Shown here: positions 27,702-56,943 of the stretch, in pieces | Position numbering within the stretch: the stretch's first letter is position 1 | Layout of the letters: every line of letters begins with the position of its first letter | Assembly: GCA_015178975.1 (NCBI GenBank) | Contig: WHVD01000181.1 | Location: 62,001 to 126,000, forward strand | Direction: 5' to 3' | DNA: 64,000 nucleotides | Origin: Hysterangium stoloniferum | Taxonomy: Eukaryota; Basidiomycota; Agaricomycetes; Hysterangiales; Hysterangiaceae | Notes under the pieces: model-generated | Told to the model about the DNA's origin: nothing | Database searches by the model: none | Seen by the model: only the letters and a program-made list of their open reading frames with translations | Position numbers and translations under genes: made by a program

Positions 27702-29303
27702 CAGTAGGCAACAAAACCCTTACAATGTTTTGCACTTTTTGAAAGACATGGCTATTCCTCCAGAAATAAATTCTGTAAATTGCTGAAAATATTATGTAAT
27801 ATACTTCAACATCATACCTTCCAGAAAGGCACAGCCACAAGGCACCATGTCCTTATTTGGTATGTCCACATCACACACAAACCAATAGCTCATTGTAAGG
27901 GTTTTGTTGCACACTATTTTGAGACTATTATTACAAGAAATTAGTATTTAGTATGGCCCCCCTTTGCTCTAATCACTGCTGCAAGTCTTCTAGGCATACT
28001 CTCAATAAGCTTCTGACACTCCTCCTTTGGAATCTCTTCCCACACCTTCTGCACCCTCTCCCATAGTTTATGAACACTATTTGCAGGCTGTTCATACTCC
28101 CCCAGCTTCTTTTTGACATGATTCCACAGATGTTCAATAGGATTCATGTCAGGAGATTGTGCAGGCCACTTGAGGACTGTAACATCATGGTCATTAAACT
28201 ATTTCTGGGCCTTGTTGCTGCTGTGTTTGGGGTCATTGTCTTGTTGAAACATAACATCAGCCACTGTTTTGTTGTAATATTTGAGGGTTTGCTGGAGTTC
28301 ATCATCCAGGATCTCCACATAAATCTCAGCATCCATCCTCCCATCAATTTTGGTTGCAAACCCAACCCCAGCCCAGCCTATGCATCCCCACATCATCAGG
28401 TTTTCTCCTCCAAACTTGACTGTTCCCTCTACTAACCTATCATTTAACCTCTCACCCACATTTTTCCACACATTTTTCCTTCCATCTGATCCCAGCCTAT
28501 TAATCTTAGTCTCATCAGACCATATGACCCTCTTCCAGTCCTCCAGGGTCCATTCCAAATGCCTTTCTGCAAACTCCAATTGAGATTTCCTATAATGAGA
28601 TTTGAGAAGTGGCCTTTTTCTCTTTACCACAGCCCTCATGCCTATGGTTTTGAGGTGGTGATGCACTGTTTGTGAAGTAATAGGAGTGTTGATGATGTCT
28701 ATAAGTTTCTTGGTTGCCTGTGTGGCATTATCAACCTTCCCCATGCCAATTATTCTTCTAGGATAGGCAATATTGGCTGTGGTAAGCTTTGTAGGATGGC
28801 CACCAGAGCATTTGGGGAGGTCAGGGTGATGCTCAGAGTGAATACAACTGATGGTGGCACTGCTGAGATGAGTTTGGTAACATATTTGAGCTCCAGAAAT
28901 GCCAGAGTCAAGTAGAGTAAGAACATGTTGGATTTGGCTGGAGGAGAGCTTTTTCATTGTGAGTAGGGTGATTGTGGGATTCCAACTGGTTGCTTTCATC
29001 TTATATACATTGAGGAAGAGTGGTCACATGACTTTGTTGAACTTTATAAACAAAGTCATGTGACTAGGACCCATTTTGAACTTTAAAAATGTGTGCAACA
29101 AAACCCTTACAATGAGCTATTGGTTTGTGTGTGATGTGGACTTACCAAATAAGGATGTGGTGCCTTGTGGCTGTGCATTTCTGGAAGGTATGATGTTGAA
29201 GTATATTACATAATATTTTTGGCATTTTACAGAATTTATTTCTGGAGGAATAGCCATGTCTTTCAAAAAGTGCAAAACATTGTAAGGGTTTTGTTGCCTA
29301 CTG
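27702..29303 (-). mobile_element. Tc1/mariner transposon 1, nearly whole, inside copia pol
   Basis: The ends are CAGTAGGCAACAAAACCC and its inverted copy GGGTTTTGTTGCCTACTG, flanked by TA on both sides (27,700-27,701 and 29,304-29,305), the standard Tc1/mariner duplication. The terminal inverted repeats are long, about 210 bases each (27,702-27,913 and 29,092-29,303). Within each arm the 20-mer GCAACAAAACCCTTACAATG occurs at the outer edge and again, inverted, at the inner edge. The transposase lies between the arms on the minus strand. The element is CpG-poor. Confidence 0.93.
27941..28999 (-). pseudogene. Tc1/mariner transposase 1 with a single nonsense codon
   Basis: From the Met at 28,999 the frame runs 266 codons. 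It shows an N-terminal helix-turn-helix (SSQIQHVLTLLDSGISGAQI), a PTKLT linker, the first catalytic Asp in WSDETKINRLGSDG, the second in QQDNDPKHSS and, past one TAG at about 28,198, the Glu in PIEHLWNHVKKKL, giving a DDE triad. The protein ends MPRRLAAVIRAKGGHTKY, the family terminus. The TAG follows NKAQK, where relatives have Trp, so TGG to TAG is the likely change. Apart from that codon the frame is open over about 350 residues, the normal length. It would cut and paste the element at TA sites. Confidence 0.88.
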
Positions 29304-32300
29304 TATATCTAGTTGTGTCCCTAGCATGGTATACATGAGGGACCCGACAAGTTGTTGGTAATGTGACCTCGTCGTAAGATCAAATCCTGTCTCTGTATTG
29401 GATACAAGATTGGTTCCTGTGGGAAAGGGGTGTATGCCAGCCGGCAGTTCTGCATATTGAAGTGATCAGCTATACGTTGTATGCAGTGGGTCTGGTCTAT
29501 CGTGATAGTCCTTTTCGAATGGTTGCGGGTAATGTGAAGTCCCAGGAATTGTTCTATTTCTCCTAGATCAGTATATTTATACTTGGAACCAATGAAAGCT
29601 TTCACATCTTGAATGTTTTTCAAGTTGCCAAAAATTGCCATGTCATCAACATATACTAGGATAATTGTAAACTCTCCCCCTTCGTTGTGACTCTTGAAAA
29701 AGATGGAGACATCCCCTGAAAGTAGCTTACTGTATCTGAAGCTTTCTAAAGTCCCTTGCAGGTGCTCATGCCATTGGCGCCATGCTTGCTTCAAGCCATA
29801 GATCACTTTCAGGAAACGACACACGAGTGTTTCCTTCCCAGGTACTGTGAAGCCTTCCAGTTGATCCATGTATATCTCTTCATTGAGATTCCCATTTAGA
29901 TAGGCTGACTTGATGTCAATTTGGTGGATATCCCAGTCGTAGACAGCTGCCAATGATAATAAAAGTCATAATGAGTCCAGATGAGCAACTGGAGAGAATG
30001 TTTCCTCATAGTCAATTCCTTCAGTTTGTGTGAACCCTTTCGCAACAAGCCGGGCCTTACATATATCTTGTGACTTCTCCCTGCATATTTCATTTCGTCA
30101 CATACACCCATTTGTTCTTAACGGTGGTCCGGCCTTCTGGTAGACTGACCAGCTCCCAAGTCTTATTATCTGCTAGTGATGTGATTTCTTCATTCATAGC
30201 TTGCTGCCAAAGGTATGCTTCGGGTGTCTTCATGGCATAAGTGTAGGTGCTATGATCTCCAGTTGGTGTAATACTCGCAGCAGCTATGAAGGCCTCTGGG
30301 GAATCATCCCAGACATTGGCAACCCAGGGGCGTAACCCTTGTTGTATGTGTTCCCGATCAGGGTGTGCATTCATTGGATCGTTTCGCTGTATGCCCCAGT
30401 TCGGTCTGGTGGACCTACAAAGTGGTGGAAGTGGCTCTTCAAGCAGAGGTGTTGGAGGGGGTGCATTTGAGTGTGGCGATGTAGGTGTATGCACACTTGT
30501 ATGTGGTGGTATGTGATCTTCATCGTCACTCTCAGGTAATAAGAGGTCAAGTAGTTCAGTGTTGCTGTGTGGGGTCACAGATGATGGTTCAGTTTGGACA
30601 GGTTTGATTGTGTGAGGGTGGATAGGGAAGATACCTTCTTCAAAGGTAACATCAGTTGAAGCTATGAATCTTCGTGCCATGGGGTTCCATAGTTGATATC
30701 CTTTTGTAGTTGGTTCATAGCCTGTGAATATAAGTTTTTCTGATGTAGCAGCAAGTTTGGTTCTTGCCGTTGTAATGTGCCTATATGTGAGGAAACCAAA
30801 GACTCGGAGGTAAGATAGGTCAGGCAGATGGTTAAAGAGCCGTTCATATGGGGAAATATACTCATTGACTCGTGAGGGTACATGATTTCTTATGTGGGTG
30901 GCCGTGGATACAGCACTCTCCCAAAAAGTGTTTGGCAACCTGGCAGATTGTAACATGGCCCAGGCAGCTTCCGCTATTGTCCTATTTGCTCTCTCAGCTA
31001 CATCATTTTGCTGTGGTGTGTGGGGTGTGGTGAGTTCATTTTTAATTCCCTTTTCTTCCAAGAATTTGATGAAGTCTTTTGATAAAAACTCCCCCCCTCG
31101 ATCAGAATGTACAGCCCGTATGTCTGTTTGAAATTGGGTCGATATATATGCAGTGAAAGACTTAAATGTGTTAAAGGCTTGATCTTTGGTGCGCAAGAAA
31201 AATGTCCATTTAAAGTGTGTGTAATCATCAACAAGCATGTAGTGATAAGAATTCTCTTGTATAGATCCTATGTTCATTGGTCCTGAAAGGTCCATGTGGA
31301 CTAGTTCAAAGGGGTTTGTTCTCCTTGTATGCGTAGTTTTAAAGGTCCTTATCATGGATTTTCCAAGTAAGCAGCCTTCACATGTAGAGAGCCTGTGTGC
31401 AGAAGTGGAATCTATGTGATCACTGAGCTTCTGAAGAGTTGTCCAGGAGAGGTGTCCCAACTGGGCGTGGAGAGTCTCAATCGGGATTTTCTTCTGGATC
31501 GAGTGAACTGTAGGCTGTGAGGAACGGAGTGTGATCCATTATTGTTGTCCAATTAAAATTCCTTTTGCACATGGAGCAGAATTCTTGCTGAGAGTAACAG
31601 TGTTTGTGAAAAAGGTGGTAGAGATCCCTTTTTCTCCTAGTTTCCATATTGAAATGAACCTCCCATTAATGTTGGGCGAGTGTAGGACATTTGTTAATCT
31701 AATTTGTTTTTCAATCCCTTCGATTTGTGTGGTGGCTGCAACTGTGCCAATTCCAATGTAGGATATTCGTGTGGTCCCATCTGCCAGGTGAATGTGTTCT
31801 GGTCTTGGCAGAGCTCGGTATTCTGAGAAGTCTGAGATTTTGTGAGTGATGTGATCTGAGCATCCTGAATCTAACATCCATTTTGTTTCATGCACAATGT
31901 AAAAGATAATGGCCTCATTTGAGATTGACTTAACCATTACATTGGTACTGCTAGGAGGTGGGGTATATGCTTCCTCTTGTATTGATGTGCTCACAGTTGG
32001 TGTATCTTTCTCTTTCCCATCCTTCCCCACTTTCCATTGCTTTCTCTCACTCTGTGCCTCCTCTTTTGAAAGGCCATGCTGTTTCTGTCAGCAGTCTCTC
32101 TCCCAATGCCCCAGGGCGCTGCAGAAGTTACATGTATCATTAGTCCTCCTTTTCCCTTGTTTTATTGCATTAACTGAGGTCATTCTTTGTAATAGTTCTT
32201 CAGATAGAATGTGGGCACACATATTTGCAGAAGTGAGTGTCTTGTAGTCACTCACGTTCACTAGAATAGTTTGCTGGATTATTTCGTATGTGGGGTAGGG

Positions 32301-32495
32301 CGTGAAGGATAAGGAGTGCATGGAGGCTATCTGCAATGGGCATTCCAGCTGTTTCGATATGGGAACAGTATTCAGACATCTCATCTATCTGTTGTGTAAA
32401 TGGGAGATCAGTTGTAATAGATGTATTGAAGTATTTGGTGATGTCGACCCAAAGATTGAGTCCTGTGCGAGTGCTGTAAGTTTCTTGTAGTCTTT

Positions 32496-32884
32496 TCAGA
32501 ATATTGTCTCCCTGATATGTCTTATTGTATTTCCGTTTAAAGAATACTTCCATTTCTGTCCTATTATGGTCTCAGTTTGTAGTACAATAACGAGAAGACT
32601 TATATTAGTTTCCGCGAATTTGTACTTTACCTTAGATCTGATATCGACTTAGTTTCTTATTCCCTCTTCCGTCTTTCTGTACGCTCAATATTCGGAACTC
32701 TTCGGAACTCTCAATATCCGTATCTTCCATCGTAAGTCTCACCTCTGAAATTAAGGACTTTGAGTGTTTGCGTAGAGGTGCAGCACATAAGCTGAAGCCA
32801 ATGTCCTGACCCTATCCGATAGTTCCCGACTTTCCGGTGACTTTCTGATAGTTCCAGAATAAGTTCCCGACACGGCACTTAACG
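32496..32884 (+). mobile_element. Truncated LTR of the 35.5-kb family inside copia gag
   Basis: This piece matches the solo LTR at 35,489-36,682 from its position about 155 to its end, leaving out the 645-base insertion that the other copy carries. It ends with GTTCCCGACACGGCACTTAAC and keeps the hairpin block (GCAGCACATAAGCTGAAGCC). The left end of the LTR is missing and I see no target duplication, so it is a deleted or rearranged copy. It shows what the family looks like without the nested insert. Confidence 0.7.
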
Positions 32885-33183
32885 GTCTGTCCCATTCATT
32901 AATGGCCTGTGTTTCTTCACTTGTAGGGGTCTCAGGTGTTTTTGGTGTTGGGCGAGTCTCATTTCCCTCAGCAATGCATAATACTGTGTGAGGCGAAATG
33001 CACTTCGTACTGAATATGACCAATCTTCCCAATTTGTTCCATTGAATTTTTCAATTGAAGTTAGAAGTCTGGAAGTTATTGATGACATGTTCTGATTGTT
33101 GCAAGATGGGTGTGTGTGTGCTGTAGGTATTGTCAGGTAGGAATAGTACCTTATAAGTGTGTTAGGCAGCAGGGCCTATAACC

Positions 33184-33458
33184 TATTGTAAAAGGTCACA
33201 ACTTGTAGACACAGTGCCACTCAGGAAACTCCTGAGTGTGAGTAGACTGACTCTGTTGTTTTTTTACTATTGTACAATACCTATTTACTTTATACTAATC
33301 TATGTCCATTGTTCCATCTAAATGAGTATAACAATGGGCATATATATCCACAGTCATGTGCCACTTAGAATAAGGGGCATAATAGGAATCTAATAATAGA
33401 TTCAAGTAGTCATTGTGCTCAGAGGTAATTCAACCGTTATTGTTCCCTTTTTACAGCA
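33184..33458 (-). repeat. 5' LTR of the copia element
   Basis: 275 bases, matching the LTR at 26,795. The gag start lies about 100 bases inside (at 33,088 on the minus strand), so the leader is short. The outer flank begins with the GAATA duplication. Confidence 0.85.
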
Positions 33459-33463
33459 GAATA

Positions 33464-34095
33464 TTCGTAGCACGTCATTTCAAGTCTGTGGTAATCTATA
33501 TATACATACAAACAGCTAAATGTTAATAATGCTATTGCGTGTGCCAAAGAAGGGTATAACTAAAGCACTAATTAAAGCCAAGAACCTGTTGCAAGCACAC
33601 GATGGGTTTTCATGCGGGTAAAGGTGATCCTGGACTTTCATTATAACAATATGATCTGCATTCAAACTCCCCAGTTACCTTCTTGGGCTATTGAAGGTGA
33701 TCATGAGGGATTGGCAGCCAAAGCAGGAAGGCAAACAGCACCGTGGGCATATATGTTCTGGGTCTCAGTCTGGGTCCCATATTAGATTTTTTGGGTTTGC
33801 GAACAATGTAGCATGTGATTGATGGGTAACCGGGTATAGTATTACTGGTAGTAGGTACTTAAACTAGGTACTTGTACTCTACACTTCATATGTTTGCAAC
33901 ATGTTCTTTGTACCCCAACTGAGTCAAGTGTATTACAAACCTGAAAATTCTAACATCCCAGGGTCACTCCTAATCTCAATTATCCACTCCGCCACACACC
34001 ACTTTGTATCCTGATTCCGCCACCCCCTCACTGCCTCACCTTCATCCATTCAGGGCATCCCCTCCCAGTCCACACAAGATCCTGGCAGATTACAG
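33464..34095. other. No supported gene
   Basis: CpG-bearing flank between the copia element and the long-TIR element. There are no frames of note, only weak AT-rich stretches. No repeats recognised. Confidence 0.4.
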
Positions 34096-35488
34096 CCCTT
34101 TGCATTACGTAAGGCACGCACTAGATTTGTGTGGAAATATTGTTGAAAGTTGCCAACCTCGTAGCTTGCTCAATAATTGACCAATTGTCTTGTAACTTAA
34201 TATATGTATTTTAATGCTGTATATCTAGTATATTATGATGTTATAATTCCAAAATTTGACCTACAGCATGTTTCCCAAAATTGCAGTCCATTTGAGGTTG
34301 TGAACCAATTCATGAGCCAACAGATGTGTCACTCCCAATGAGTTTGTAATATGTTGTTTTACATGTATCTTGGTAGTAAAAAATGACAGCACCTGGCTTT
34401 TGCGGTCAGAACTAATGTGAGTGAGGTTGCCGAGTAAATGCATACAACTACCCCCATACAGGTTTGCAGCTGGTAATTAGACAGCAAAAGCCAGGTGCTG
34501 TCATTTTTTACTACATACAGTGACCCAAAAAAGCATCCAGATGTTTGGTGAAATTGGAAAGATGGGTTTGCAGCTCCAGAAATAAAGTAGATAAAATTCT
34601 GAATACATTAGAGGTAAGAGGCATACATCTGACCTACATGATGACATAAGCATGACATCATAGCTTTCCTTATCAGGGAAGTAGGAAATAAACAATGGAC
34701 ATGGTGCATCCGGACATTTTTTTTGCTCTGTCAACTGATACATGAAACTCAACTAAGGTTCATATAACTGTGGGAATTTCTGGTTAGGTTCAACAATGTC
34801 ATGTGACCACATGTTTAAGTAACACATTTACATGAACCTTTGCCTCAATTCACCCCCCCACCACATGATGAAGAAGCACTCTACTGAAACAAGGCTCTCT
34901 GTCATTTCTCTTCTCCAGGAGGGTCACTCCTGCAGAACAATTGCTTCTAAAATTCATATTGGGGACTCTACAGTATCAGAAATTCGCTCCCAACTCCCTG
35001 GTCCACTTCCAACACCTTCCAGAGGTTGTCCTCCCAAACTCTCCCCCAGGGATCATCACCACGTGGCTCGTTCTATCACCTCTGGACAGGTTGATAATGC
35101 CTCCCAAGCCAAGTCCCACCTCTCCCTCAATGTCTGCACACAGACAACTAGAAATGCATTGAAGAAAGAGAATTTGAAGGCTGTGGTGAAGGCCAAAAGA
35201 CCTCTTCTTGCCTGTTGACACATCAAGGCTCGATATGAGTTTGCTATCAAATACCAGCATTGGACTGAGGAGGACTGGTTTAGGGTTTTCTTCTCAGATG
35301 AGACCAAAATCAATCGTTTTGGCTCTGATGGGAGGTTGTGGGTATGGAAAAGACCAGGTTCTGCACTCACTCAGCAGCATATCAATGGAACTATCAAATT
35401 TGGAGGGGGGAGTCTAATGATTTGGGGATGTATGACAGCACATGGTGTGGGGTACATGTGCAAGATAGATGGGAGAATGGATGGGGAG

Positions 35489-36682
35489 TGTTACGACCCG
35501 TTCCCAGATGTTTTCAATATCCGACTTCCGATCTCTGACTATGGAACATCATAGTTACCGTATCATCTGCGTTCTTCCCTTGTTCCGCATTTGGTAATTT
35601 GTCCATTGACAAGTATTCACTCGTTTGTTGTTGTATTCCCATTTCGGAATATTGTCTCCCTAATATGTCTTATTGTATTTCCGTTTTAAGAACATTTCCG
35701 TTTCCATCTTATTATGGTCTTAGTTTGTAGTACAATAACGAATAGACTTATATTAGTTTCCGCGAATTTGTACTTTACCTCAGATCTGATATCGACTTAG
35801 TTTCTTATTCCTTCTCCCGTCTTTCTGTACACTTGATATTCGGAACTCTTCAGAACTCTGAATATCTGTATCTTCCATTGTAAGTGTGAAGAGTCGATAG
35901 ATTCTGACCGTTCAATATACGAAGAATAGTGTCTATTCAACTACTATTAGCAGATATTGACCGTACAGTACAATACCGTAGATTACTAGACAAGCTGTAC
36001 TAGTAAGAAGACACGCTATGCATCACAAGAGCAACTGTACAGTTGCTCTTGACGGCTAGAATGAAAGAATGAAAGAGTTGACCTTCACGGTACAACTCGT
36101 AGCTAGATGTAAAATATATAATCAACGCGAAGCTGAATATCTAGAGTAAAGAAATAATAGCGCGAGTCAACTATAATGTCGACTAGCGCAAAGACCTTAG
36201 ATTGGAACTCAACCTTCGCGGTTCGAGTCCGAAGTACGTTAGTATGCAAGAGAATACTACCTTTAAAGGTAGTTGAAATGTTACCCTTGACACCTCTCGC
36301 TATTCGACGTCTGGGTCGTTTACGAGGTGGTGTCTTCTGGGTAAAAGTTGTCTGTCTCTTTTGGCGCCGAGAGCGCCCATACGTATACACAAAGCTTCGA
36401 ACTACAAAATCAAGGTGTGCTCGAAATATAGAAAGAATATAAAGAAAGAAAATAAAAGGTAAATAATAAAGTACTATAATCCAGCTATTATTCCTTAGTC
36501 CAGGTATGCATATATGCATACCCTTTACAGTAAGTCTCACGTCTGAAATTAAGGACTTTGAGCGTTTGCATAGAGGCGCAGCACATAAGCTGAAGCCGAT
36601 GTCCTGACCCTATCCGATAGTTCCCGACTTCCCAGTGACTTTCCGATAGTTCCCGAATAAGTTCCCGACACGGCTCTTAACA
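35489..36682 (+). mobile_element. Solo LTR inside transposase 2
   Basis: It runs from TGTTACGACCCG to GGCTCTTAACA and has a perfect 5-base target duplication, GGGAG (35,484-35,488 and 36,683-36,687), which splits the transposase codon run. Its first 390 and last 150 bases match the LTR piece at 32,496-32,884. The hairpin block GCAGCACATAAGCTGAAGCC lies at about 36,578, near the right end. About 645 bases in the middle belong to another solo LTR. Confidence 0.93.
35885..36529. mobile_element. Solo LTR nested in a solo LTR
   Basis: This 645-base segment begins TGTGAAGAGTCG and ends CCCTTTACA and is flanked by GTAAG on both sides (35,880-35,884 and 36,530-36,534). The related LTR at 32.7 kb has only one GTAAG and lacks the segment, which proves a precise insertion. 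TG..CA ends with 5-base duplication indicate a solo LTR. The family is not seen elsewhere in the window. Within it lies a perfect 24-base palindrome with 12-base arms AAGAGCAACTGT (36,027-36,050). It keeps many CpG and is the youngest layer of this nest. Confidence 0.88.
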
Positions 36683-37737
36683 GGGAGATGTACAAGGACA
36701 TATTGGAGGACTATATCTTCAAAACAGTGGAGTATTATGGGCTGGACAGGGAAAGGTTTGTCTTCCAGCAGGACAATGACCCTAAACACACTTGCAAGTT
36801 GGCCAAGGATTGGTTCAAGGACCATCAGGTGGAGGTTTTAGACTGGCCTGCACAGTCTCCAGACCTGAATCCAATAGAACACTTATGGTGGGAGTTGAAG
36901 AGAAGGCTTGGAACATACCCTGAGGCACCCAAGAGCATATTGGAGCTCTGGGAGAGAGTGGAGGTGGAATGGGAGGGTATTCCATGGGAGAAATGCCTTT
37001 AATTGATCAAGAGCATGCCTAGAAGGGTTGCTGCAGTACTAAAGGCCAAGGGGGGGTACACTAAATACTGAAACTGGTAAAAACTAGTCATTAATTACAA
37101 GAGCAAAAAAAGTGTCCAGATGCACCATGTCCATTATTAATTTCCTACTTTCCTGATAAGGAAAGCTATGATGTCATGCTTATGTCATCATGTAGGTCAG
37201 ATGTATACCTCTTACCTCTGATTTATTCAGAATTTTATCTATTTTATTTCTGGAGCTGTAAACCCATCTTTCCAATTTCACCAAACATCCAGACACTTTT
37301 TGGGTCACTGTAGATACATATAAAACAACATATTACAAGCTCATTGGGAGTGACACATTTGTTGGCACATGAATTGGTTCACAAGCTCAAATGGACTGCA
37401 ATTTTGGGAAACATGCTGTAGGTCAAATTTTGAGTTATAACATCATAATATACTAGATATATAGTAGTAAAATACATATATGAAGTTACAAGACAATTGG
37501 TCAATTATTGAGCAAGCTATGAGGTTCGCAACTTTCAGAACTTTCAGCAATATTTCCGCGCAAATCTAGCACGCGCCTTACGGAATGCAAAGCGCTCGAT
37601 TCAAGGCACAAACTGCGGTTTTCTCGTAATACTTCCATCAAATCCGAACTCTCGGGACGGATCCCATTTGTGAAACGTATAACTCCCTACTCTCTGAGTA
37701 GTTTGTCACCTGCCTGTCCATAAACCTCCCGTCCGCT

Positions 37738-38172: not shown

Positions 38173-38209
38173 TTTTGGGTTGTGGTGGTCGGTGATAACC
38201 TCCAACTAG

Positions 38210-38965: not shown

Positions 38966-38999
38966 GTGCTGAGCACTCAACACACATTTCCATGCTTGT

Positions 39000-44763: not shown

Positions 44764-47700
44764 TAGTGGTTTGCAAGGCCGGGCCCAAAGCCCGAAAGCC
44801 CCGGCTGCCGAGCCCTGAAAGCCCGAGCCGAGCCGAGCCTTCACACAAGGCTCAGGCGGCCCGAGGGCTCAGCCCAGGATTTTGAGAGCCTGAGCCGAGC
44901 CCTTGGGCATGGGCTTTTAGTCATACATCATGGTGCTCCACTTGGTTCAACTGCCCTGACCAAAACGGTTCAAGAGACCCAGATTCGAGGTAGCTTCCAA
45001 TGGCAAAGGGTGCTACATCAATGCCATCAGTGCCATCAGTGTCCCGCCCCAAACAGGGTTTACATCCAGAAAGCAAAGTTGTCAACCCAGCAAACATTGC
45101 ATCTGCTGAGCTGCGCTCTCACAAAGATGCTATCAATGCAAGAAGGATGGCTGAAGCTGCTGAGGCTGCTAGTGGTCAAGATACAAGATCAACGCTAGAA
45201 ACATCTGGGTAGACATCACCAATTCTACCAACAACTGTCACTTCATCGCTGGAACTACCCACAACTGGCAAGCATTCAAACCTGACGATTGAGGGTGGTG
45301 ATGACTCTGACAATGATCAAGACCTGATTAGGCATTGTACATCATGTCTTGCTTGAGTTGTTTTTCATTACTAACTCTTGAAACCTAGGGAGCAAAAAGT
45401 CACGACACTTAATCATTATCAATGAGAGTGATGAGGAAAGGCAAGGTGTTTCAGAAAATTCACCAGAGCAAGGCAAGACATTCTCATTCAGATAATATAG
45501 TAGACTGAATTATAAACCATAATCTGCCACCAGAGTATTCAATCAGAAGCCATTGACAAAGATGGTTTTCTCATTGATGTGGACATCCAACCTATTCCCA
45601 ACGCCGCCCCAAAAATGTCATTGAAGGATCGAAGCCATGACTGAGATCATTTCTTCACACCAAGCTTGATCCAGAAAGACAAAAATTACCACAATTGTCA
45701 CATTTGCTTGTGAGTGTTTATACAACTGTGGAAACCTTTCCCTCATTGACCTCTGGTGCCTGGCTTTACAGTACAAAGTCTCCGAAACATAAGGTGTCTC
45801 TTGTCACAGATGTGACCACCTGTTGATGATACATGAATCATATCACAAAGTAAATTCATCTATTCTTATATTTCCACTTCATTGAATGCTTCATCCTATA
45901 GTAGGGAGTATACCTCAAATGGGCCACTGAAAATGAGTTCCAATCAATGTTGCCCAAGGATGCTAAATGTTGGCATCAGGAAACCATGAAGGACACACAA
46001 CAATGCCTTGATCCTCACCTGGAAGAGAAACCACATCGAGAGAGTGTCATTCCATACACAGATAACCTGTTTTGTGAGGCAACAATAGGGTGGCTTGTAT
46101 TGACTGACCAGGTAACAGAGGTTCTAATCATACAATACAGTACATGTTCAAATGATGTTTTATGATAGCCAATCCAAGCATTCCACCACCCAGCTTTCCA
46201 AAAGATGATATATATTGCAGCACGTGCAACCAATGGGGTGAAGATTCCAAATGGCCACCAAACATGCCAGGTGATCCTTGACACCTTCAAGGCACAACTG
46301 ATTGCACTATGTAGGAGGCTAACAGTGTGATCAAATCATATCACTCTTTATTTATGTTTTGCTGACAGTCATCCCATAGAGTGACATGGTAAAAGGTAAA
46401 GTTAGTTTAACTTGTGACACATGGCAGGCCTCAAATATCAATGACTTTGCTGTTACTGGGTCCTGGATTGAGGAGGTCAATGGTCAGTGGGAACTTCAGA
46501 CCATGTTGCTAGGTTTTACACAGTTGAACAATGCACACCATGGTGTGTGGCTGGGTCAAGCCTTGTTCAAGATTGTTGCACGCTTGGGGATTGCACATAA
46601 GGTATGTCACACTTAAAACTCCCAAAGCAAGTTGACTGTCATCAGTAAATATAGATTGGTCATGTAACTGGTGACAATGCATCAAACAATGGCACCATGC
46701 TCAAAGAGTTTGCAAAACATATCTGTGCAGAGATGGGACAAACATTCCACCAGAAAAAGTTCGTATTTGGTGCATATGAGACTTCTATTTTCATCTTCTC
46801 CCTTTAACATGGACAGCTCCTAGATGTCTCACTCATATTATCAACCTTGCGACACAGGCATTTATTTCGACACACAGCAAGTCAAAACACTACAATCCAG
46901 CAGAACCAGAGGCTGACCTCATGGTTGGTAATGGGCGTGATGTGGTGGGCCTTGTGTGGGCAATAAGTGTCAAGGCAACCAACATCCTATTCCCTTCACC
47001 CATAACCCACTGTTGATGACATGCATCCAGGCACATTCCTCTACAAAATGGAAGCAGCTCTTTGCAGACCTTCAGCACTGTGTCAATATGAAGCCAATTC
47101 ATCAGCTCCTTATTGACATCCCAGTTCGCTGGTCATCAACATATATCATGACTTCACAAATTGAATTAATGGGTGATATAAGTACTGTTATGATGACATG
47201 CATATCTACTGACATGAACAGATTATCAATAAATTTGTATACGAAATTGGAAGGGATGAGAAAGACCTCATTAAATGTGAAAAAATTGATAATCTACAGC
47301 TTGATGCTGGGGAATGGGATGAATTAAAGTTATTTAATGATCTTCTCACTGTAAGCCTAACTTTGTTCTCATTCCTGTTGTCATTGAATGTTCAGGGTTT
47401 CTAGCATGCCGACAATGCTCAACATGCATTCTTGTCAGACCAGGCACCCACCCTGCACCTGGCGTTACCTGCCCTTGAAGCACTACACAAGGCATGGAGT
47501 TCTCGACATGCTCGTGTGAAGTATCAGGCCTTTGTTGCTGCTCTGGATGCAGGCTTGGTTAAAATTGCAGAGTACTATGATCAAACTGCTGATTCCGATG
47601 CATACACTTTTGCTATGTGTGTGTAACAACATTTCATATTTTTTTCCTGATGCTAACACACATATTTTGCAGTTCTCGATCCCTCACACAAGACCAAATA

Positions 47701-48626
47701 CATTTGGAGATACTGGGGTGTAGATAAACTCAACAACATCCTCTTACATGCTGAAGAGATTGTATGTTTCATCATCTACAAACCAAAGAAACTCTAATTA
47801 ATTGGCTGTCAGTACAGGGAACATTACACAGAGATGTATATAGGTAACCCAGTGCCACCACCAAATCAGACAGGAAGCTTGATGACACGCAAAGTCGGGA
47901 TCTTGCTTCATGAACTATCAGACGATGAAGATGATGCAGACACACATATACAGAATGCTCACACTGACCCAAATGACCCATGGTGCGAAGACTTCAAGGG
48001 CTACTTACATTCAAGGGATGAGCTTGGGACCATGACAATTGTCGAATGGTGGGGGGTGTGGATGTGTCTTGTATACTATATGTGATATACTCATGCTGTC
48101 ATCACAGTGGAATTCAACCAGGTACCCAGTCTGGGCCTCACTAGCTCGGGACTACCTTCCTGTCATGGCATCATCTGTCTCTAGTGAACATGCATTTTCA
48201 TCAGCTGGAATAACTATCAGCAAGCGTCGTAGTCGGCTCAAACCTGACATTGTTGAGGCTTTACAGTTCTTCAAGTGCCTCCATCGCCGAGAACTGATCT
48301 ACCGAGAAGAACCAAGCACAATGTTGGAGTGTGTTGAGGGGAGTGGGGAGCCTAGGAGTTGGGATGACTTTGTTGGAGACCTTGAAGATGATGAGGGCTT
48401 TGAGCATTTAGATGATGAGGAGGTTTTTGTTCAAAGTGTTGTGTAGGTACAACATCAGAGAAATTCGACACATTTTGCCCCTGGAGCCGCGGGCTGAGCC
48501 TGAGCCGAGCCCGAGCCGAGCCTGAGCCCTCTACCTGGGCTCAGCTCGAGGTTTAGGAAAGCCCGAGCCCTACTAAGCCGAGCCCAAGCCGGGGTTTTGA
48601 GCCGAGCCGGGCCCTGCAAACCACTA
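44764..48626 (+). mobile_element. hAT transposon
   Basis: The left end TAGTGGTTTGCAAGGCCGGG and the right end CCCTGCAAACCACTA form a short inverted repeat of hAT type. Both ends carry GC-rich subterminal repeats of the unit GAGCCGAGC (44,800-44,900 and 48,485-48,610). The interior encodes a hAT transposase on the plus strand. The 8 bases outside each end (CCTGCAAG and GTTATTCT) do not match, so the expected 8-base duplication is absent. The interior is CpG-poor while the subterminal repeats keep CpG. Confidence 0.85.
45000..48446 (+). pseudogene. hAT transposase, multi-exon, degraded
   Basis: Segments in family order: a leader at 45,000-45,212; a Cys/His segment near 45,680 (NYHNCHIC) that may be the BED-type finger; ARATNGVKIPN and VILDTFKAQL near 46,210-46,300; the first catalytic region KGKVSLTCDTWQASN (Asp) near 46,400; HVTGDNASNNGTMLKEFA (second Asp) near 46,660; RCLTHIINLATQAF near 46,810; DIPVRWSSTYIM near 47,120; and the dimerisation domain at 48,040-48,330 (SSEHAFSSAGITISKRRSRL). 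Several short introns seem to interrupt it, and one or more shifts and stops (for example after 46,140 and 47,320) make activity unlikely. The enzyme would excise and reinsert the element with 8-base duplications. Confidence 0.75.
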
Positions 48627-49666
<1,040 letters not shown>

Positions 49667-49959
49667 TTCCCTCTTATTCGTTATCAAGTCCTCATATTCC
49701 CCGTAATGTTTTCTACTACTAGATCAATGAAGCGTTTCTTTTCAATCATGTATGTAATTCTTCGTCCCCGCCGTCTTGCATGCATGCTGATCTCGGGATG
49801 GATATAGATATAGATATCTAACAGCTTTATTAATTCGCTACACTATTCTCATTACGACTTGTGGCTGTCCATGCGCTACATTTCAGCTCTGTTCACTTTA
49901 GCGATTTGCTGCATTCCACAGCGAATCGCTCATTTCATGAGGAAGAGAATAATCCTATT

Positions 49960-50971
49960 ATTTCCCACCAGGAGCTAGACACGTGTAAGTATTGACAAAC
50001 CGCATATTTTAAGAGCATGCGAACTTGTGAGTGCATCTTTAATCTGTGCGGGGTGAGCTCCAGGCTGTAGGGCCATTCTTGCGGCGCCCTGTAAACCTGG
50101 ATAAAAGTACAAGTCATTCAACCATACTAAAGTTATTTTACGTAGATGATTACTCTGTGCAGCGAGCTCCAAAGCCTCTTCTCGAGGGAGACCCATCATG
50201 ACACCCATGGCCTCTAGGAAACTACAAGCGAAAGTAGGGTCAGAGCCGGAAAAGGCGGTGCAAGCGTCGAAATGTTTCTCTTCAAGAACTCTGCAGCGTC
50301 AATAGACTTAAAAATTGCCAAAATGATGGCACGGTCACAATGCGTGTCTTGAGACGCGGGAGTGGTAGATACGACGGTCATACCCTCCCGGATCTTAAAA
50401 GCCATAAACAAGAAGTTAGTAGAACAACATTAAATGCAAGGAGGGCCTGACTTTGCAAGGGCTCTTAGGCATTGCATTTGTCGGATAACATTTGTGGAAG
50501 GATTGACGAGGGTCTTCAGTTGAGAGATCGTCACTCCAGCAAGAATGCTAATGAGAAGTTTGTCTTCTAGAGTCTCTCTCATCCCATTCTCGTTGAGGAT
50601 CGAGTGAACAAGTTGAGGTTTACAGCTTATATATGCAGTATGTAATGCATCTATGTATTCAATATAGCTTGCAGTCCCGTAGAAGTATAACATCTGCTTG
50701 TTTTTCTGCCTACACATTTTGCTTTGCCGTGACTTCAACAGTCGCTCCAAGAGGCCCGAGAGACCGCAATGATGTTGGGAATGCCTTTATACTTTCTGCC
50801 CTGTTTACACAGGCACGTAATCGAGACGGTAATCAATCATCTGCTTTGTGCTGGGCCGTAGTTGTACCGGGGGTATGAGTTTCCCACTTTGGACGGTCAA
50901 AGTGTGCCCCATTTGACTCCAGGCTTGCTACACCCACAGTTCCGCAGCCCGAAAATGATCAATATTGCATA
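49960..50971 (-). pseudogene. PRO3: Pyrroline-5-carboxylate reductase, disrupted
   Basis: The enzyme makes the last step of proline synthesis, reducing pyrroline-5-carboxylate with NAD(P)H. On the minus strand one sees the Rossmann loop GCGTVGVASL, VNRAESIKAF, CKPQLVHSILNENGMRE, LLISILAGVTISQL, MPKSPCK / IREGMTVVSTTPAS (intron between), HFDACTAFSGSDPTFAC, GVMMGLPREEALELAAQ and, after an intron, LQGAARMAL and HPAQIKDALTS. The last conserved block reads SHALKICGL in place of Gly-Gly-x-Thr-Ile-Ala-Gly. Two in-frame stops (near 50,825 and 50,715), a 5-base insertion before MPKSPCK and a one-base loss before EEKHFD are present. It starts head to head with ALG13, 136 bases apart. Confidence 0.8.
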
Positions 50972-51107
50972 TGAAAAAGTGAAAAGTGATATTACCTATC
51001 ACGCACAGAGTATAACCCACTTTTGTTGGGGCGTTGGCGTTAGTAGGTCGACAAGAAGTGAATTGGCCACGATGAGCTAAGGTCTTAGTCTTGACCTCAT
51101 ACACAGT
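50972..51107. promoter_or_regulatory. Short divergent intergenic region between P5CR and ALG13
   Basis: The 136 bases between the two head-to-head starts must hold both promoters if both were expressed. I see CpG-bearing sequence and a pyrimidine-rich part, but no TATA box that I could defend. The call rests on gene arrangement only. Confidence 0.35.
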
Positions 51108-51700
51108 ATGCGTGTGTTCGTGACTGTTGGTGCTACGTCGCCTTTCGATTCACTGTAGAAACCATTCTTTCACCAAATGGTTGTCATGCGCTACTTCAGA
51201 AGAACTGTGACCATATTGTAATAGAGGTCGGGCCGAGTATGGAATATCAGGATCTACATCAGGAGTGCAATGGTTTAACGATCGAAATGTGGAGGATGAA
51301 ATCCTCTCTAGATAACGATATTATAGCTGCAGATCTGGTCATAAGCCATGCTGGTCTGACGGCCTTGAGTTGCATCCTAAAGCGTGGCATAGGCTCCGGG
51401 TTGATCCTCAAGGCGCCGAGGCCGGGAAACCCACTCATTGTAGTTCTAAACACGACCTTATTGCACAACCATCAGTTGGAACTAGCTCAAGGAGTCGAGT
51501 GAGGGGAATTTTTTGTTTCTACCACTGTTTCGTGCGTGGCCGCTACTGAAATACCAGTTTTGTTGACTCAGTGTTGTTACATCAGGGAGCTGGCTGCAAC
51601 CATCAGAAACTTCAACCCATCATCGTTATCGCCTTTCCCAGTCTTTGACCCTAACAAGTTCAAGTCTCTGTTGGATGAGGAGATGGGTTTTGAGCTGTAG
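51108..51700 (+). CDS. ALG13: ALG13, catalytic subunit of UDP-GlcNAc transferase
   Basis: With ALG14 this protein adds the second GlcNAc to dolichol-PP-GlcNAc on the cytosolic face of the ER. From Met 51,108 the sequence gives MRVFVTVGATSPFDSL, then VETILSPNG, CDHIVIEVGPSMEY, GLTIEMWRMKSSLDND, AADLVISHAG, and after an intron (about 51,350-51,390) SGLILKAPRPGNPLIVV and TTLLHNHQLELAQ. A second intron (about 51,497-51,575) leads to RELAATIRNFNPSS and FKSLLDEEMGFEL before the stop at 51,698. Family motifs are the GT28 SHAG, the PL-VV-N and the NHQ-ELA. A one-base loss at about 51,158 (CTGTAG where CTGGTAG would keep frame) creates an early stop. Length is normal, near 170 residues. Confidence 0.82.
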
Positions 51701-51811
51701 TTCATCTTCCATCCAAGATCAATTTTACGCCAGCAATTTCGCTGGGGCACGGTTTGCCTACATAGGGCTTGCTGTAGCACTAGGGGTAGGACTACTACGG
51801 CTAGGCGGTAA

Positions 51812-52390
51812 TCATTTCCATACTTTCCATGTACCGCCGTCGTCCAAGTACGGATGTCTCGTTCCAACCCGTCGTCCTTGCTCCTCTGAATGCGTTTTCC
51901 AGACCATGTCCTTAACAACAGAAGCCTCATTCTATATTAATCTAAGCAAGGACTTTTCGACGAGAGTCATGCTCTCGGCATCCAAAGCAGAGGTTGGCTC
52001 TGAAAACAATGTGACCATCCAGAACCCGAAACCACAAATAACGCAACTCACCATCCAAGAGTAACATCTCAACACCCAGAATGCCAATAGCCACGGCTAA
52101 CCCGATTCGCTGGCTTTCACCTCCACTCAAAGTAGCCCAGGGTCTATCCCAAGCATCTTCATCAATCCCCCATTTCTCAGCCAACCTTTTAGGCCCATGT
52201 ACTGCGCCAGTAGCATTTGAAAAGGAATGCAACGATGGGAGGCCTGCTTGGTGGCTCGAACCGGCCTTGGACTGGTCGTTTTGGGCAGATTTACGTCAGT
52301 CGTATGACGAGACCAAGTTAATTAATCCTCGTTGTGTCGATGGGAGTAATGATGGACGTTGAGGTACATAAAGAACGCGTGTTATGTAGG
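51812..52390 (-). CDS. ABC transporter-type ATPase, C-terminal half
   Basis: On the minus strand the sequence reads LYVPQRPSLLPST (the Q-loop region), GPKRLAEKWGIDEDAWDRPW, the ABC signature LSGGESQR, IGLAVAIGILGVEMLLLDG (Walker B, with Gly where Glu is usual) and, in a later frame, THSEEQGRRVGTRHPYL (the H-loop His) ending at 51,812. The Q-loop to signature distance fits a small single-domain ATPase like the FetA/YbbL group. Walker A is not found, so the first exon is missing or lies beyond 52,400. Frame changes lie near 52,290 and between Walker B and the H-loop; some may be introns. It lies tail to tail with ALG13, 111 bases apart. Confidence 0.65.
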
Positions 52391-52565
52391 TGTTTATTCC
52401 TTTACAGGTACTGTAAATCGAAGGATCCTGATCGAATTGCTCTTGAGTTTACCATAAGTAATGACTTTTGCAAGGTCGAGGTATGACTTCACTCAATCGA
52501 TGCAAACCCAGTTCCACTTCGGCTCAATAAAACAAGAATACGAAAGGATAGAGTCTAAATACGAA

Positions 52566-52693
52566 GCTCAGTGAGTGAGTAAATAAATTTCACTATATAT
52601 TATAAATACCTAAATACAAATGTTTTGTAAGTAATAGAATAAGAGTAGATGATTGCACATATACCTCAGTGAGTGAGTGAATAAATTTCACTG
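52566..52693. repeat. Pair of 28-bp direct repeats in AT-rich DNA
   Basis: CTCAGTGAGTGAGTAAATAA followed by ATTTCACT occurs at 52,567 and, with one change, at 52,666. The second copy is followed by TGAGGTATA, so it can also pair with the sequence before it (TATACCTCAGTGA) as an inverted repeat. This AT-rich piece could be part of the 3' LTR of the copia relic that follows. Confidence 0.5.
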
Positions 52694-53413
52694 AGGTATA
52701 TGGCAAGATATTGCGACTTTTTATTTACTTTCTAATTGTTTAGGAGAGTTGTTAGGGGAAGTAAAAAGGAGGGATTTCAATACTCAAAGTTTCTAGCTAA
52801 TTGCATTATTAGGGAGAAATTTGTGATCAAAGGAGTTAGTTCCCCTTTATGGCATTATAGTATATGCACATACACTCGTCATTGCGGATTCGATCTTGAT
52901 TTCGGTTTATGCGAAGACTTGCTATTATTAACATTTCCCCTCAAGTCGAGTGTTGATAAGACCGAGTTTTGATGTGAAATAGATACATTTCGGATGAGGT
53001 AAAGCTTTGGTGAATATATCTGCTGTCATATCTTTGGTAGGACAATATGCGAGTGTGACTGTGCCATTTTCCACAATTTCATATATGAATTTGTCCCATA
53101 TATCAATGTGTTTCGTTTGTCCTTGGAATCTATTATTCTTTGATATGATAATAGCAGCTTGATTGTCACAATGTAGTGTAATTGATTTGGTGAATGGATG
53201 AAACACTTTGTTCTGGAATTTGTGAATCCAGCATGCCTCTTTGATAGCATATGTGGCTGCAACGAATTTGGCCTCAGTGCTAGATAAAGTTATGAGCCTT
53301 TGTTTGTTTGAACTCCAAGAGAATTCTCCACCATTTAATAGAAAACAATAGCCTGACATTGAATGTCAATCTGGTTGTTGTCCCCAATGCACATCTGTAT
53401 ATCTCATTATACC

Positions 53414-54199
53414 TGTTACGACCATAAATCCCACCAGACTCTGGGTACTAACTTATACGCACCCGCACCCTATACACACCCATTATCAGTTCACCGGAAT
53501 TCCCACCAGACTCCATATGTCAGACTTGTCTACGTTCAACTTCGTTACATTGTGTTTCAGTCACCAGAAAACCCACTGGACTCCATCTCTGTCTATATCT
53601 GACCTCATCCCATGTGTCAGTCACCGGACCCCACTCAGAAAACCTGTCATCCCTCTAACAGAGCCCCGTTCCCATTTTAGTCAAATGACCTGTCACAATT
53701 CAGACTCAGCTCCCACTCCATTTCCCATTATCGTTTATGATTTGTCACTATTCGGACTCCGCTCCATTACATCCCGTTCCTAACACCAATTTGGTGTTTA
53801 CTATTCCTGTTTTATGTTTTGCTCATTTCGTTTCATCATTACTGGATTCGGTATGACATTCACTCCACAGTCTATTTAAACTGGCAGATGTTGTACATAC
53901 AATCCAGTCAAAAAATTGCCTTAGATTCCCCCCAGTAATCTAATACATTGTCCACTCTAAACTCCTGCTTGAATTACACCGCTCGCACTAGTCGGAGCCT
54001 ATGGGCTCTGGTGCATCTATCTCTCTTACCTATCTCGACTCACGACTCACAACCCCCACCCGGACTCCCTGGGATTCCCGTCCACCTGCCTGAAATTGGA
54101 CAACACGATCTAGTGAGGGCACAGCCTATAAGCTGAAGCCAAGTCCTACCGGATATCCCATGGGTTTCTCCGGAGACCCACCCTGTATGTATCCTAACA
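53414..54199 (+). mobile_element. Solo LTR, A family
   Basis: Starts TGTTACGACC, ends ATCCTAACA, and is flanked by a perfect ATACC duplication (53,409-53,413 and 54,200-54,204). It splits the RNase H and RT parts of the copia relic. The hairpin block is at about 54,122. Confidence 0.92.
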
Positions 54200-54730
54200 A
54201 TACCATTCTTGTTTCTTCCCAATGTTAATTTGAAGTTTCATGTTCCCTTCAAATATTTCAGTACTCTTTTTGTTGCCTCCCAATGTACTCGTCCCAGATT
54301 CTCCATAAATTGAGATAAAACAGATACTGAAAAAGCAATATCTGGTCTTGTACCTATTGCAGCCCACATTAGCAAACCAATGGCTTCGTGATATGGAATA
54401 TTCTTCATATTTTCGCACTCTCTTGGTGTAGTAGGGCATTGTTCTTTTGATAATAATGGTTTGGGATCCATAGGTAATGTGACTGGGGCTGCATCTTGTA
54501 AATTGAATTGTTTGATAATTAAGTCGATACAGTGGGTCAAAAAACTGCCCCAATGTTTGTGCATTTTAGAAAGATTGATATTGTGTGAAGGAATGACATC
54601 AGCAAAAACTCTGAATAATTCACATGATATACTAGAACATGTTGGCTATCTACCAACTTAAAAAATCATGTGATTCCAATCAAAACCCATTGCTCAATAA
54701 ATCAAACAAAATAATCACTCATCGGGGCAG

Positions 54731-55524
54731 TGTTAGGATACGTACAGGGTGGGTCTCTGGAGAAACCCACAGAATATCCAGTAGGACTTGGCTTCAGCTT
54801 ATAGGCTGCACCCTCGCTAGATCATGTTGTCCAATTTCAGACAGGTGGATGGGAATCCCGGGGAGTCTGGGCGGGGGTCGTGGGTTGTGAGTCGAGACTG
54901 GTGAGAGAGATAGATATGCCGGAGCCTGTGGGCTCCAACTAGTGCGAGTGGTGTGAATCAAGTAGGGTTTTTAGAGTGGAAAATGTATTAGATTACTGGG
55001 GGGAATCTAAGCTAATTTTCTGACTGGATTGTATGTACAACATCTGCCAGTTTATATAGACCGTGGAGTGAATGACATACCAAATCCAGTAAAGACGAAA
55101 CGAAACTAACAAAACATAAAACAGGAATAATAAACACCAAGTTTGGTGTTAGGAATGGGACGGAACAGAGTGGAGTCTGAATCGTGACAAGGCATAACCC
55201 ATAATGGGAAACAGAGCAGGAGCGGAGTCCAAATTGTGACAGGTCATTTGACTAAAACAGGAACGGGGCTCAATTAGAGTGGTGATGGGATTCTGAGCAG
55301 GGTCCGGTGACTGATGTGTGGGACGAAGACAGACATAGACAGAGACGGAGTCCGGGGGAAGTCTGGTGACTGATATGTGTTGTAATGAGGTTGAAACGTA
55401 ACAAGTCTTGATGTACAGAGTCTGGGCGGGAAATCCTATAAACAGACATTTGGTGCGTGTAGGGTGTGGTGTGGTGGTGTACAGGTTAGTGCCTGGAGTC
55501 CGGTGGGATTGTCTGGTTGTAACA
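54731..55524 (-). mobile_element. Solo LTR, A family, inside Tc1/mariner 3
   Basis: Begins TGTTAGGATA and ends GGTTGTAACA on the plus strand. The duplication is GGCAG on the left (54,726-54,730) and GGTAG on the right (55,525-55,529), one C/T difference. It lies in the left arm of the transposon and interrupts the inner end-motif copy. The hairpin block is at about 54,793. Confidence 0.9.
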
Positions 55525-55688
55525 GGTAGTTTTTTGACCCTCTATTATTTTCTCTGATTTTCAATGTTACACACCAGTATAAGGTAGGAGTGGGTCATGT
55601 GAATCATCAACATGTCATGTGACCTTATTTGTATCAATTTGGCATGTTGAACTTTGTTCATTCATCTGCTTGACTCCTTACCACCAAT

Positions 55689-56700
55689 ATGAAATCCATC
55701 TCTGCTGAAATGCATTCTTCTGTTGTTTCTCTCCTCAATGAGGGGTATTCCCATCATCAAATTCAAGCTAGGACTGGCCTGGGGAAGGGTACTATTGGCA
55801 GGATCAGTAGAGAGGTAGAGAGGGATAAGGAAAATCATCCTGGTGGCTGTCCTTCCAAGCTTTCCCCTTATGATAAACAGTCAATTATCTGTCAAATCAG
55901 CTCTGGGAAGCTTGACAATGTTGTCCAAGGCACCCAATTCATAAATTCCATCATATCTACCTCTGTCACTCCTCAGACTGTTAGGAATGTGTTGAAGGAA
56001 GCTGGCTTTAGGTCAGCAACAAAGAAGAAAGTCCCTATGCTCAAGGGGTCTCATCATCAGCAATGTCTAAAGTTTGCCCAATACCATGAAAATTGGACTA
56101 TGGAAGACTGGAAGAGGGTGTTGTGGACTGATGAGACAAAAATCAATAGGATTGGGTCAGATGGGAAGGTATATGTTTGGAAGCAACAAGGGGAACCAGT
56201 ATTAGACAGGACCACCACACCAACTGTCAAACATGGAGGGGGGAATAACTTGATAGTTTGGGGGTGTATGGGCTGGAATGGGATGGGGAAGCTGATAGAG
56301 GTGCAAGGGAACATGGATGCAGTGCAGTATTGTGAGATTTTGGAGGAGGGAGTGGAGGAGAGCATTGAAAGTTTGGACATGGCTGAGGATAAGTGGTACT
56401 TCCAACAGGACAATGATCCAAAACATACCTCAAAAAGGACAGACCAGTGGTTTTCTGACAATAACATCATTCCCATGAAGTGGCCTGTCCAATCCCCTGA
56501 TTTAAATCCCATTGAATATCTCTGGCAACACCTCAAGGCCAAACTCCAACAATATGACATACCACCCAAAGGTGTACATGAATTATAGGACAGAGGAGTG
56601 GACTGAAATACCACCAGAGACATGCCAAAAGCTAATAGAAAGCATGCCTAGGAGGATACAGGCAGTTTTAAAGGCAAAGGGGGGTCATACAAAGTATTAG
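55689..56700 (+). pseudogene. Tc1/mariner transposase 3, nearly whole
   Basis: The frame is open for 299 codons from Met 55,689. It has the N-terminal helix-turn-helix (VVSLLNEGYSHHQIQARTGL), a GGCPSKLS linker, the first catalytic Asp (WTDETKINRIGSDG), the second (QQDNDPKHTSKRTD) and the Glu (PIEYLWQHLKAKL). A TAG after VHEL, where relatives have Trp, and a frame change just after it separate the last 30 residues, which end MPRRIQAVLKAKGGHTKY at 56,698. So one nonsense codon and one shift are the only visible lesions. It is about as close to the transposase at 27.9 kb as to that at 34.9 kb; all three belong to one DD34E group. Confidence 0.88.
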
Positions 56701-56943
56701 ATTGTAAAATAATAAAGGGTCAAAAAACTGCCCCAATGAGTGATTATTTTGTTTGATTTATTGAGCAATGAGCTGTGATTGGAATCACATGATTTCTTAA
56801 GTTGGTAGATATCCAACATGTTATTGTATATCATGTGAATCTTTCAGAATTTTGTCTGATGTCATTCCTTCACAAAATATCAATATTTCTAAAACACACA
56901 AAAATTGGGGCAGTTTTTTGACCCACTGTGTATATGCAGTTTG

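What the first reader, a model, noticed from the sequence alone, without database searches (positions are those of the whole stretch)
27702..56928. Tc1/mariner family with palindromic arms: four alternating copies of one end motif per element
In all three Tc1/mariner copies (27,702-29,303; 34,518-37,310; 54,530-56,928) each terminal arm of about 205-215 bp begins with a ~20-25 nt motif and ends with the same motif in the opposite orientation. In copy 1 this is GCAACAAAACCCTTACAATG and its inverse near 27,707 and 27,891, and again near 29,095 and 29,279. Copies 2 and 3 have different motif sequences but the same plan and spacing. Known IR/DR members such as Sleeping Beauty carry two direct repeats in each arm. 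Here they are inverted, so each arm is itself a small transposon-like unit. This could set transposase dimer geometry, or let single arms move as MITEs.
Basis: partly seen in the sequence, partly recalled or inferred. Interest (0 to 1): 0.75.

Follow-up and report, generated by a model that had tools for sequence, protein, structure and literature searches.

The report
Tc1 transposons with inverted inner sites
In this genome a group of Tc1-type jumping genes carries its end-recognition sequence twice in each end, the inner copy flipped instead of repeated in the same direction as in the well-known Sleeping Beauty element, which suggests a different way of bringing the two ends together.

Summary
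Each ~215-bp arm starts with CAGT plus a ~20-22-bp motif and ends with that motif inverted. In the first 100 exact places listed for each of two motifs, neighbouring pairs are convergent in 77 of 77 cases. Of 28 further loci, 18 show both arms inverted (3 of them weak hairpin derivatives), 7 show one such arm, 2 a single motif, 1 none; none is direct. In 12 motif families the inner motif follows its own outer motif (0 of 20,000 permutations as good) at a nearly fixed position (187-193 in 36 of 37 arms). The TACAGT cleavage tip is never on both sites of a pair (0 of 77). The smallest of 74 end-to-end spans is 876 bp, so no single-arm mobile unit was found. Best reading: a DD34E Tc1 lineage (catalytic region 42-50% identical to Sleeping Beauty) with four transposase sites in an inverted (IR/IR) instead of direct (IR/DR) layout. 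Binding and function are inferred, not shown.

The parts
27702..29303 (-). Tc1 copy 1, 1602 bp, TA/TA flanks, transposase on - strand
   Evidence: ends CAGT...ACTG
27708..27727 (+). copy 1 left outer motif
27891..27910 (-). copy 1 left inner motif, inverted, without CAGT/TA tip
29095..29114 (+). copy 1 right inner motif, inverted relative to the right outer motif
29278..29297 (-). copy 1 right outer motif
28199..29023 (-). copy 1 transposase reading frame (part; it ends before the last catalytic residue)
   Evidence: PF01498 above cut-off, DDE_3 not reported
34518..37310 (+). Tc1 copy 2, 2793 bp including a ~1194-bp insertion
34518..34543 (+). copy 2 left outer end and motif
34707..34728 (-). 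copy 2 left inner motif, inverted (diverged; inverted score 20 against direct 14)
35489..36682 (.). insertion in copy 2, TG...CA, GGGAG on both sides, solo-LTR-like
   Evidence: read directly
37101..37122 (+). copy 2 right inner motif
   Evidence: (I9)
37286..37310 (-). copy 2 right outer end and motif
   Evidence: (I9)
54530..56928 (+). Tc1 copy 3, 2399 bp including a ~794-bp insertion
54530..54555 (+). copy 3 left outer end and motif
54720..55543 (-). copy 3 left inner motif, split by insertion 54731-55524
   Evidence: (I3)
55701..56588 (+). copy 3 transposase frame, DD34E, DDE_3 and HTH_Tnp_Tc3_2
56717..56738 (+). copy 3 right inner motif, inverted
   Evidence: (I2)
56904..56928 (-). copy 3 right outer end and motif

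Best explanation
These are ~1.6-kb DD34E Tc1 transposons whose transposase recognises four sites, two per arm. In each arm the two sites face each other (convergent, about 161-167 bp between their inner edges), so the layout is inverted-repeat/inverted-repeat (IR/IR) instead of the inverted-repeat/direct-repeat (IR/DR) layout of Sleeping Beauty. Shown: site layout, near-fixed spacing, co-divergence of inner with outer motif, and absence of a cleavage tip at the inner site. Inferred: the N-terminal paired-like domain binds all four sites; the two transposases on one arm form a two-fold symmetric pair across a DNA loop; the inner sites then help pair the two arms before cutting; only the tipped outer sites are cut at TA.
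For: Orientation: 77 of 77 neighbouring motif pairs convergent in the first 100 exact rows for each of two motifs. An exhaustive mismatch scan of fetched loci gives 26 of 26 convergent in 20 copy 1 regions and 34 of 34 in the 28 survey loci, with 0 sites for the reversed motifs in the survey loci. In 37 of 37 arms of 19 elements the inverted match outscores the direct one (searched at arm positions 151-235). Of the 28 survey loci, 18 have both arms inverted and 7 one inverted pair. Co-divergence: own outer/inner score 19.75 of at most 22 against 14.4 for other families, 0 of 20,000 permutations as good, own inner best in 11 of 12, ties counted; L077 and L074 differ by the same core change at both sites. 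Spacing: inner position 187-193 in 36 of 37 arms, although 43 of 66 family pairs have no detectable likeness in the middle of the arm. Tip: exactly one site tipped in 73 of 77 pairs, both in 0, none in 4. Protein: copy 3 passes PF13358 and PF01498; D-to-E spacing of 34; six N-terminal helices in two groups of three, in a low-confidence model.
Against: No binding or activity data. The families are related, so the permutation test overstates independence. 23 of 66 family pairs still share likeness in the middle of the arm, so the fixed spacing is not fully independent between families. Left and right arms are kept alike within an element, so two arms are not two independent observations. In the copy 2 family the pair is weak: inverted 20-29 against direct 12-18, and the inner sites of the three hairpin derivatives are not found at up to 3 mismatches. 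The co-divergence alone would also fit a stem-loop or a repressor site.
Confidence: 0.68

Rival explanations
1. The inner motifs are transposase operator sites that repress the transposase promoter (autoregulation); the copy in the other arm is kept only because the two arms are homogenised.
For: The inner site of the gene's 5' arm lies between the element end and the transposase gene, and arms within an element are 89-99% alike over 200+ bp.
Against: Does not by itself explain why the terminal repeat ends at or just past the inner motif (arm position 204-240) in 14 of the 15 non-hairpin two-armed survey elements; L065 is the exception at ~369 (from coordinates). Nor does it explain the near-fixed spacing to the outer site.
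Confidence: 0.15
2. Relics of a composite origin: each arm was once a short MITE with this motif at both ends, and two such copies captured a transposase gene.
For: Each arm is bounded by the motif in inverted orientation.
Against: The inner end does not carry the TACAGT tip (0 of 77 pairs with both tipped; 0 of 12 families). No free arm was found. A relic would not be expected to co-diverge with the outer site through 12 families.
Confidence: 0.04
3. Intra-arm stem: the two motifs pair as single strands (RNA or DNA hairpin), and base pairing drives the co-divergence.
For: As single-stranded DNA the copy 1 left arm folds with the two motifs paired, z -6.4 (one arm tested).
Against: Any inverted pair folds this way. 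In a transcript of the whole element the 200+ bp arm-to-arm pairing would compete with a 20-bp stem (inference). The repeated stretch is the motif next to the CAGT tip, where a transposase site is expected.
Confidence: 0.06
4. The inner sites are decoys: flipped pseudo-ends that titrate transposase and lower activity.
For: They match the outer motif but lack the tip.
Against: Selection for a self-limiting decoy with such fixed spacing in 12 families seems less likely than a role in synapsis (inference).
Confidence: 0.07

Closest known systems
Sleeping Beauty and the IR/DR group of Tc1/mariner (review PMC7827188, passages read)
   Same: DD34E transposase, catalytic region 42-50% identical; ~220-bp terminal repeats; two sites per arm; inner site shorter than the outer (by 2 bp in Sleeping Beauty).
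   Different: Sleeping Beauty's two sites per arm are direct repeats; here the inner one is inverted in every arm that could be scored.
Bari elements of Drosophila (PMC4877112, passages read)
   Same: Tc1-mariner elements with repeated 18-nt transposase sites in the terminal ~250 bp.
   Different: Three sites per end, called direct repeats; the terms 'inverted orientation' and 'opposite orientation' do not occur in the text.
Fungal Tc1 elements, such as CreTc1 of Mucoromycotina with 218-bp terminal repeats, and Tc1-MP1 / Tc1-OP1 (PMC5630946 and PMC9977792, passages read)
   Same: Fungal Tc1 elements with long terminal repeats (59-218 bp in the rows seen).
   Different: The passages read do not describe inner motifs or their orientation; whether they share this layout was not tested.
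Mcmar of Meloidogyne chitwoodi (as cited in PMC3169594, passage read)
   Same: Tc1/mariner-like element with unusually long (355 bp) terminal repeats containing direct repeats and palindromes: a precedent for palindromic arms.
   Different: Original paper not read; the arrangement of its palindromes relative to transposase sites is unknown to me.
C. elegans Tc3 (recalled, not read)
   Same: Recalled to have a second, internal transposase site in each long terminal repeat.
   Different: Orientation of its internal site was not checked.

Membership tests
Tc1 (DD34E) of Tc1/mariner | TA at both flanks and CAGT...ACTG ends | tested here: met
   TACAGT ends, 162, 233 and 52 exact sites
Tc1 (DD34E) of Tc1/mariner | DD34E transposase with paired-like HTH domain | tested here: met
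   copy 3 passes DDE_3 and HTH_Tnp_Tc3_2, copy 1 passes HTH_Tnp_Tc3_2, the copy 2 fragment scores below the cut-offs; D-to-E spacing of 34 in the 8 frames that reach the E
IR/DR group (Sleeping Beauty type) | long terminal repeats of ~200-250 bp | tested here: met
   205-243 aligned columns in 17 of the 18 non-hairpin elements with both arms (3 in the window, 15 surveyed); L065 has 371
IR/DR group (Sleeping Beauty type) | two motif copies per arm | tested here: met
IR/DR group (Sleeping Beauty type) | the two copies are direct repeats | tested here: not met
   0 direct of 77 neighbouring pairs, 0 of 26 and 0 of 34; inverted outscores direct in 37 of 37 arms
IR/DR group (Sleeping Beauty type) | transposase binds inner and outer copies and needs all four | not testable with these tools
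   needs binding and transposition assays
MITE (single arm as mobile unit) | free ~210-bp unit with TA and CAGT at both ends | tested here: not met
   0 of 74 paired spans under 876 bp among 252 listed tipped sites of 447 counted; 0 of 7 pair-only clusters, 6 of them fetched

The most novel reading that the evidence does not exclude
A whole lineage of Tc1 transposons assembles its cutting complex on an inverted four-site (IR/IR) layout: a two-fold symmetric transposase pair closes a ~160-bp loop in each arm. This would be an alternative to the IR/DR checkpoint, reached with a transposase clearly related to Sleeping Beauty's (catalytic region mean 47% identical; the two main branches here share mean 52%).
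Probability: 0.5. Interest if true: 0.72.

Novelty: new variant of a known kind. Interest (0 to 1): 0.58.

Why it matters
The need for two direct repeats per arm in Sleeping Beauty is explained by an ordered assembly model (PMC7827188, passages). A natural lineage with the inner site flipped at nearly fixed spacing gives a direct test of what that model needs from orientation and spacing, and possibly a new tool transposon. The conclusion rests on one genome; no other eukaryote genome could be searched here.

Tried and rejected
Single arms as MITEs: rejected on spans, tips and the pair-only clusters. L044 (202 bp of arm, cut inside the inner motif) and L051 (109 bp) are arm fragments with one motif, not units bounded by two ends. 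Direct-repeat layout: none found. Relatives outside this genome: viral contigs twice and genome contigs once, no relative confirmed; no eukaryote collection was available. Structure model: low confidence (mean pLDDT 59.5); its fold search ranks Sleeping Beauty and Mos1 first but with TM-scores by query length of at most 0.36. Intra-arm hairpin: the fold does not discriminate.

A flaw found on checking: the motif lists came from a best-match search that skips weaker earlier matches, so they miss sites. One search repeats the scan exhaustively; the locus classes stand (7 loci with one pair, L079 and L083 with one motif, L082 with none).

Literature: searches (open-licence PubMed Central only) and the passages seen found no Tc1 with inverted inner sites; subscription papers were not searchable, so priority is open. 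PMC2872659: outline and abstract only. PMC7913693, PMC4054914, PMC3212995, PMC3878927, PMC4188875: passages from term look-ups, nothing on inverted inner sites; PMC6362248: look-up without a hit. PMC4188875 says direct repeats were not found in the terminal repeats of the Sclerotinia elements.

Rows dropped: L062_R (not a true right arm); L073, L085, L086 were not but are. The 12-family tests use one arm per motif family, leaving out further copies (c3, L062, L064, L065, L073, L078, L081, L084-L086). Searches list only 100 places of 480, 635, 162 and 233; one search lists all 52.
Full report
WHAT WAS CHECKED. The three window elements were read and compared with themselves. Their terminal repeats are 222, 205 and 206 bp. 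Each arm begins with CAGT plus a ~20-22-bp motif and ends with the same motif in the opposite orientation. Copy 1 is exact over 20 bp in both arms; copy 3 is exact over 21 bp in the right arm; copy 2 is weaker (16-bp block, 88%), and in its arms a plain self-comparison finds other matches first. The left inner site of copy 3 is split by a solo-LTR-like insertion.

GENOME. The window is G000:C92:62001-126000 of a 111-Mb, 554-contig assembly. I take it for a fungus, perhaps an agaricomycete, from the look of its gag-like and hAT-like frames; this is recall and was not tested. The copy 1 motif occurs 240 times forward and 240 reverse with at most 2 mismatches, the copy 3 motif 315 and 320 times with at most 1, the reversed controls 0. 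Among the 100 exact places listed for each, all neighbours within 400 bp are convergent: 38 of 38 and 39 of 39. Distances range over 173-187 bp and are mostly constant: 183 bp in 31 of 38, 186 bp in 35 of 39.

COPY 1 FAMILY. Twenty regions, most of them chosen because they looked incomplete or ambiguous, were fetched. Most hold whole or truncated elements; L042 and L053 are diverged relatives (83% and 75%). An exhaustive scan at up to 4 mismatches gives 26 of 26 convergent neighbours.

OTHER FAMILIES. Transposase searches led to 28 further loci, picked mainly for divergence and including 3 hairpin derivatives. 18 have both arms, and in all of these the inverted match beats the direct one in both arms (7 of 12, 11 of 16). 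Of the other 10, 7 keep a convergent pair in one arm, 2 keep one motif (L079, L083) and 1 none (L082). An exhaustive scan of the 28 at up to 3 mismatches gives 34 of 34 convergent neighbours and 0 control sites. In 37 arms of 19 elements, searched at arm positions 151-235, the inverted match outscores the direct one every time, and the inner site falls at arm position 187-193 in 36 of 37; the exception is L069_R at 180. An alignment of 15 arms shows the outer and inner motifs as the main conserved blocks.

WHY THE INNER MOTIF LOOKS FUNCTIONAL. Across 12 motif families each inner motif resembles its own outer motif (19.75 against 14.4; 0 of 20,000 permutations; own inner best in 11 of 12 with ties counted; the exception is L080, whose outer fits the L066 inner better). 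The families are related, so this is not a clean probability. The middle of the arm is not detectably alike in 43 of 66 family pairs, but alike in 23. L077 and L074 have left arms about 75% alike and differ by the same core change at both sites.

WHY THE ARM IS NOT A TRANSPOSON OF ITS OWN. In 12 families the six bases beyond the inner motif are never TACAGT. The tip is on exactly one site in 73 of 77 pairs, on both in none, on neither in 4 (exact matches only). Spans between facing tipped ends are 34 for copy 1 (876-2150 bp), 35 for copy 3 (1430-5966) and 5 for copy 2 (1585-1603), mostly ~1.6 kb. Seven clusters showed only one pair: 4 of copy 1 and 2 of copy 3 were fetched and run beyond the inner motif into the interior, L088 by only ~30 bp before likeness ends; the last, C1:638249, abuts a transposase match and was not fetched.

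PROTEIN. Copy 3 passes Pfam DDE_3 and HTH_Tnp_Tc3_2, copy 1 (partial frame) passes HTH_Tnp_Tc3_2, the copy 2 fragment stays below the cut-offs. Closest solved structure to copy 3: Sleeping Beauty 5cr4, E 7.6e-51. D-to-E spacing is 34. Over the catalytic region the 10 frames compared are 42-50% identical to Sleeping Beauty (mean 47), while the two main branches here are 46-60% identical to each other (mean 52). The predicted N-terminus has two groups of three helices, in a model of low overall confidence.

MECHANISM. In Sleeping Beauty, inner sites are bound first and paired, outer sites join next, and cleavage is restricted to outer sites (PMC7827188, passages). Here the number of sites, the arm length and the untipped inner site are alike, but the inner site is flipped. 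The most economical reading is that the same job is done by a symmetric pair of transposases facing each other across a ~160-bp loop. This is inference.

COMPARISON AND NOVELTY. It is a Tc1 element by the tested features. It fails the defining orientation of the IR/DR group while meeting that group's other tested features. Mcmar (cited in PMC3169594) is a partial precedent for palindromic arms. A 2016 survey of 437 fungal genomes reported Tc1 elements only in Mucoromycotina (PMC5630946, passages); whether this host lies outside that group was not tested. The ten literature searches named found no description of inverted inner sites, but cover open-licence papers only. Hence 'new variant of a known kind'.

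Noticed in passing
L084 142-1722, L085 132-1712, L086 133-1713; further loci listed: A 1581-bp palindromic derivative of the copy 2 family: two left ends with the N-terminal transposase part head to head, 729-730-bp arms (98-99% alike), ~127-bp loop, TA at both ends. One search lists 9 places with this convergent pattern, one of them partial. It resembles a long-hairpin element such as C. elegans Tc6 (recalled) and could be a source of double-stranded RNA against the family.
   Followed up: partly
34094-34370 and 37312-37596: Copy 2 sits inside a foldback repeat with ~280-bp arms (257 of 286 alike). At other loci the two arms are ~146-151 bp apart, so copy 2 entered at the edge of the loop (34371-34515). 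The 40 scored arm matches in the genome, the window's own left arm included, are 92% or more identical.
   Followed up: partly
54731-55524 and 35489-36682: Two TG...CA insertions with 5-bp repeats (one imperfect), solo-LTR-like, interrupt copies 3 and 2 (read).
   Followed up: no
G000:C89:106448 and 106550: Two tipped copy 1 right ends in the same orientation only 102 bp apart, perhaps one element inserted in the arm of another.
   Followed up: no
c1, c2, L066, L069, L072, L076, L080 arms, about positions 60-95: A partly shared block (like CCAGAAATAAA..T..TAAAAT) in the middle of the arm in several families, a possible third site or bend.
   Followed up: no
22587-23624: Long open frames on both strands over a low-complexity Ala/Asp/Ser/Pro-rich repeat.
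   Followed up: no
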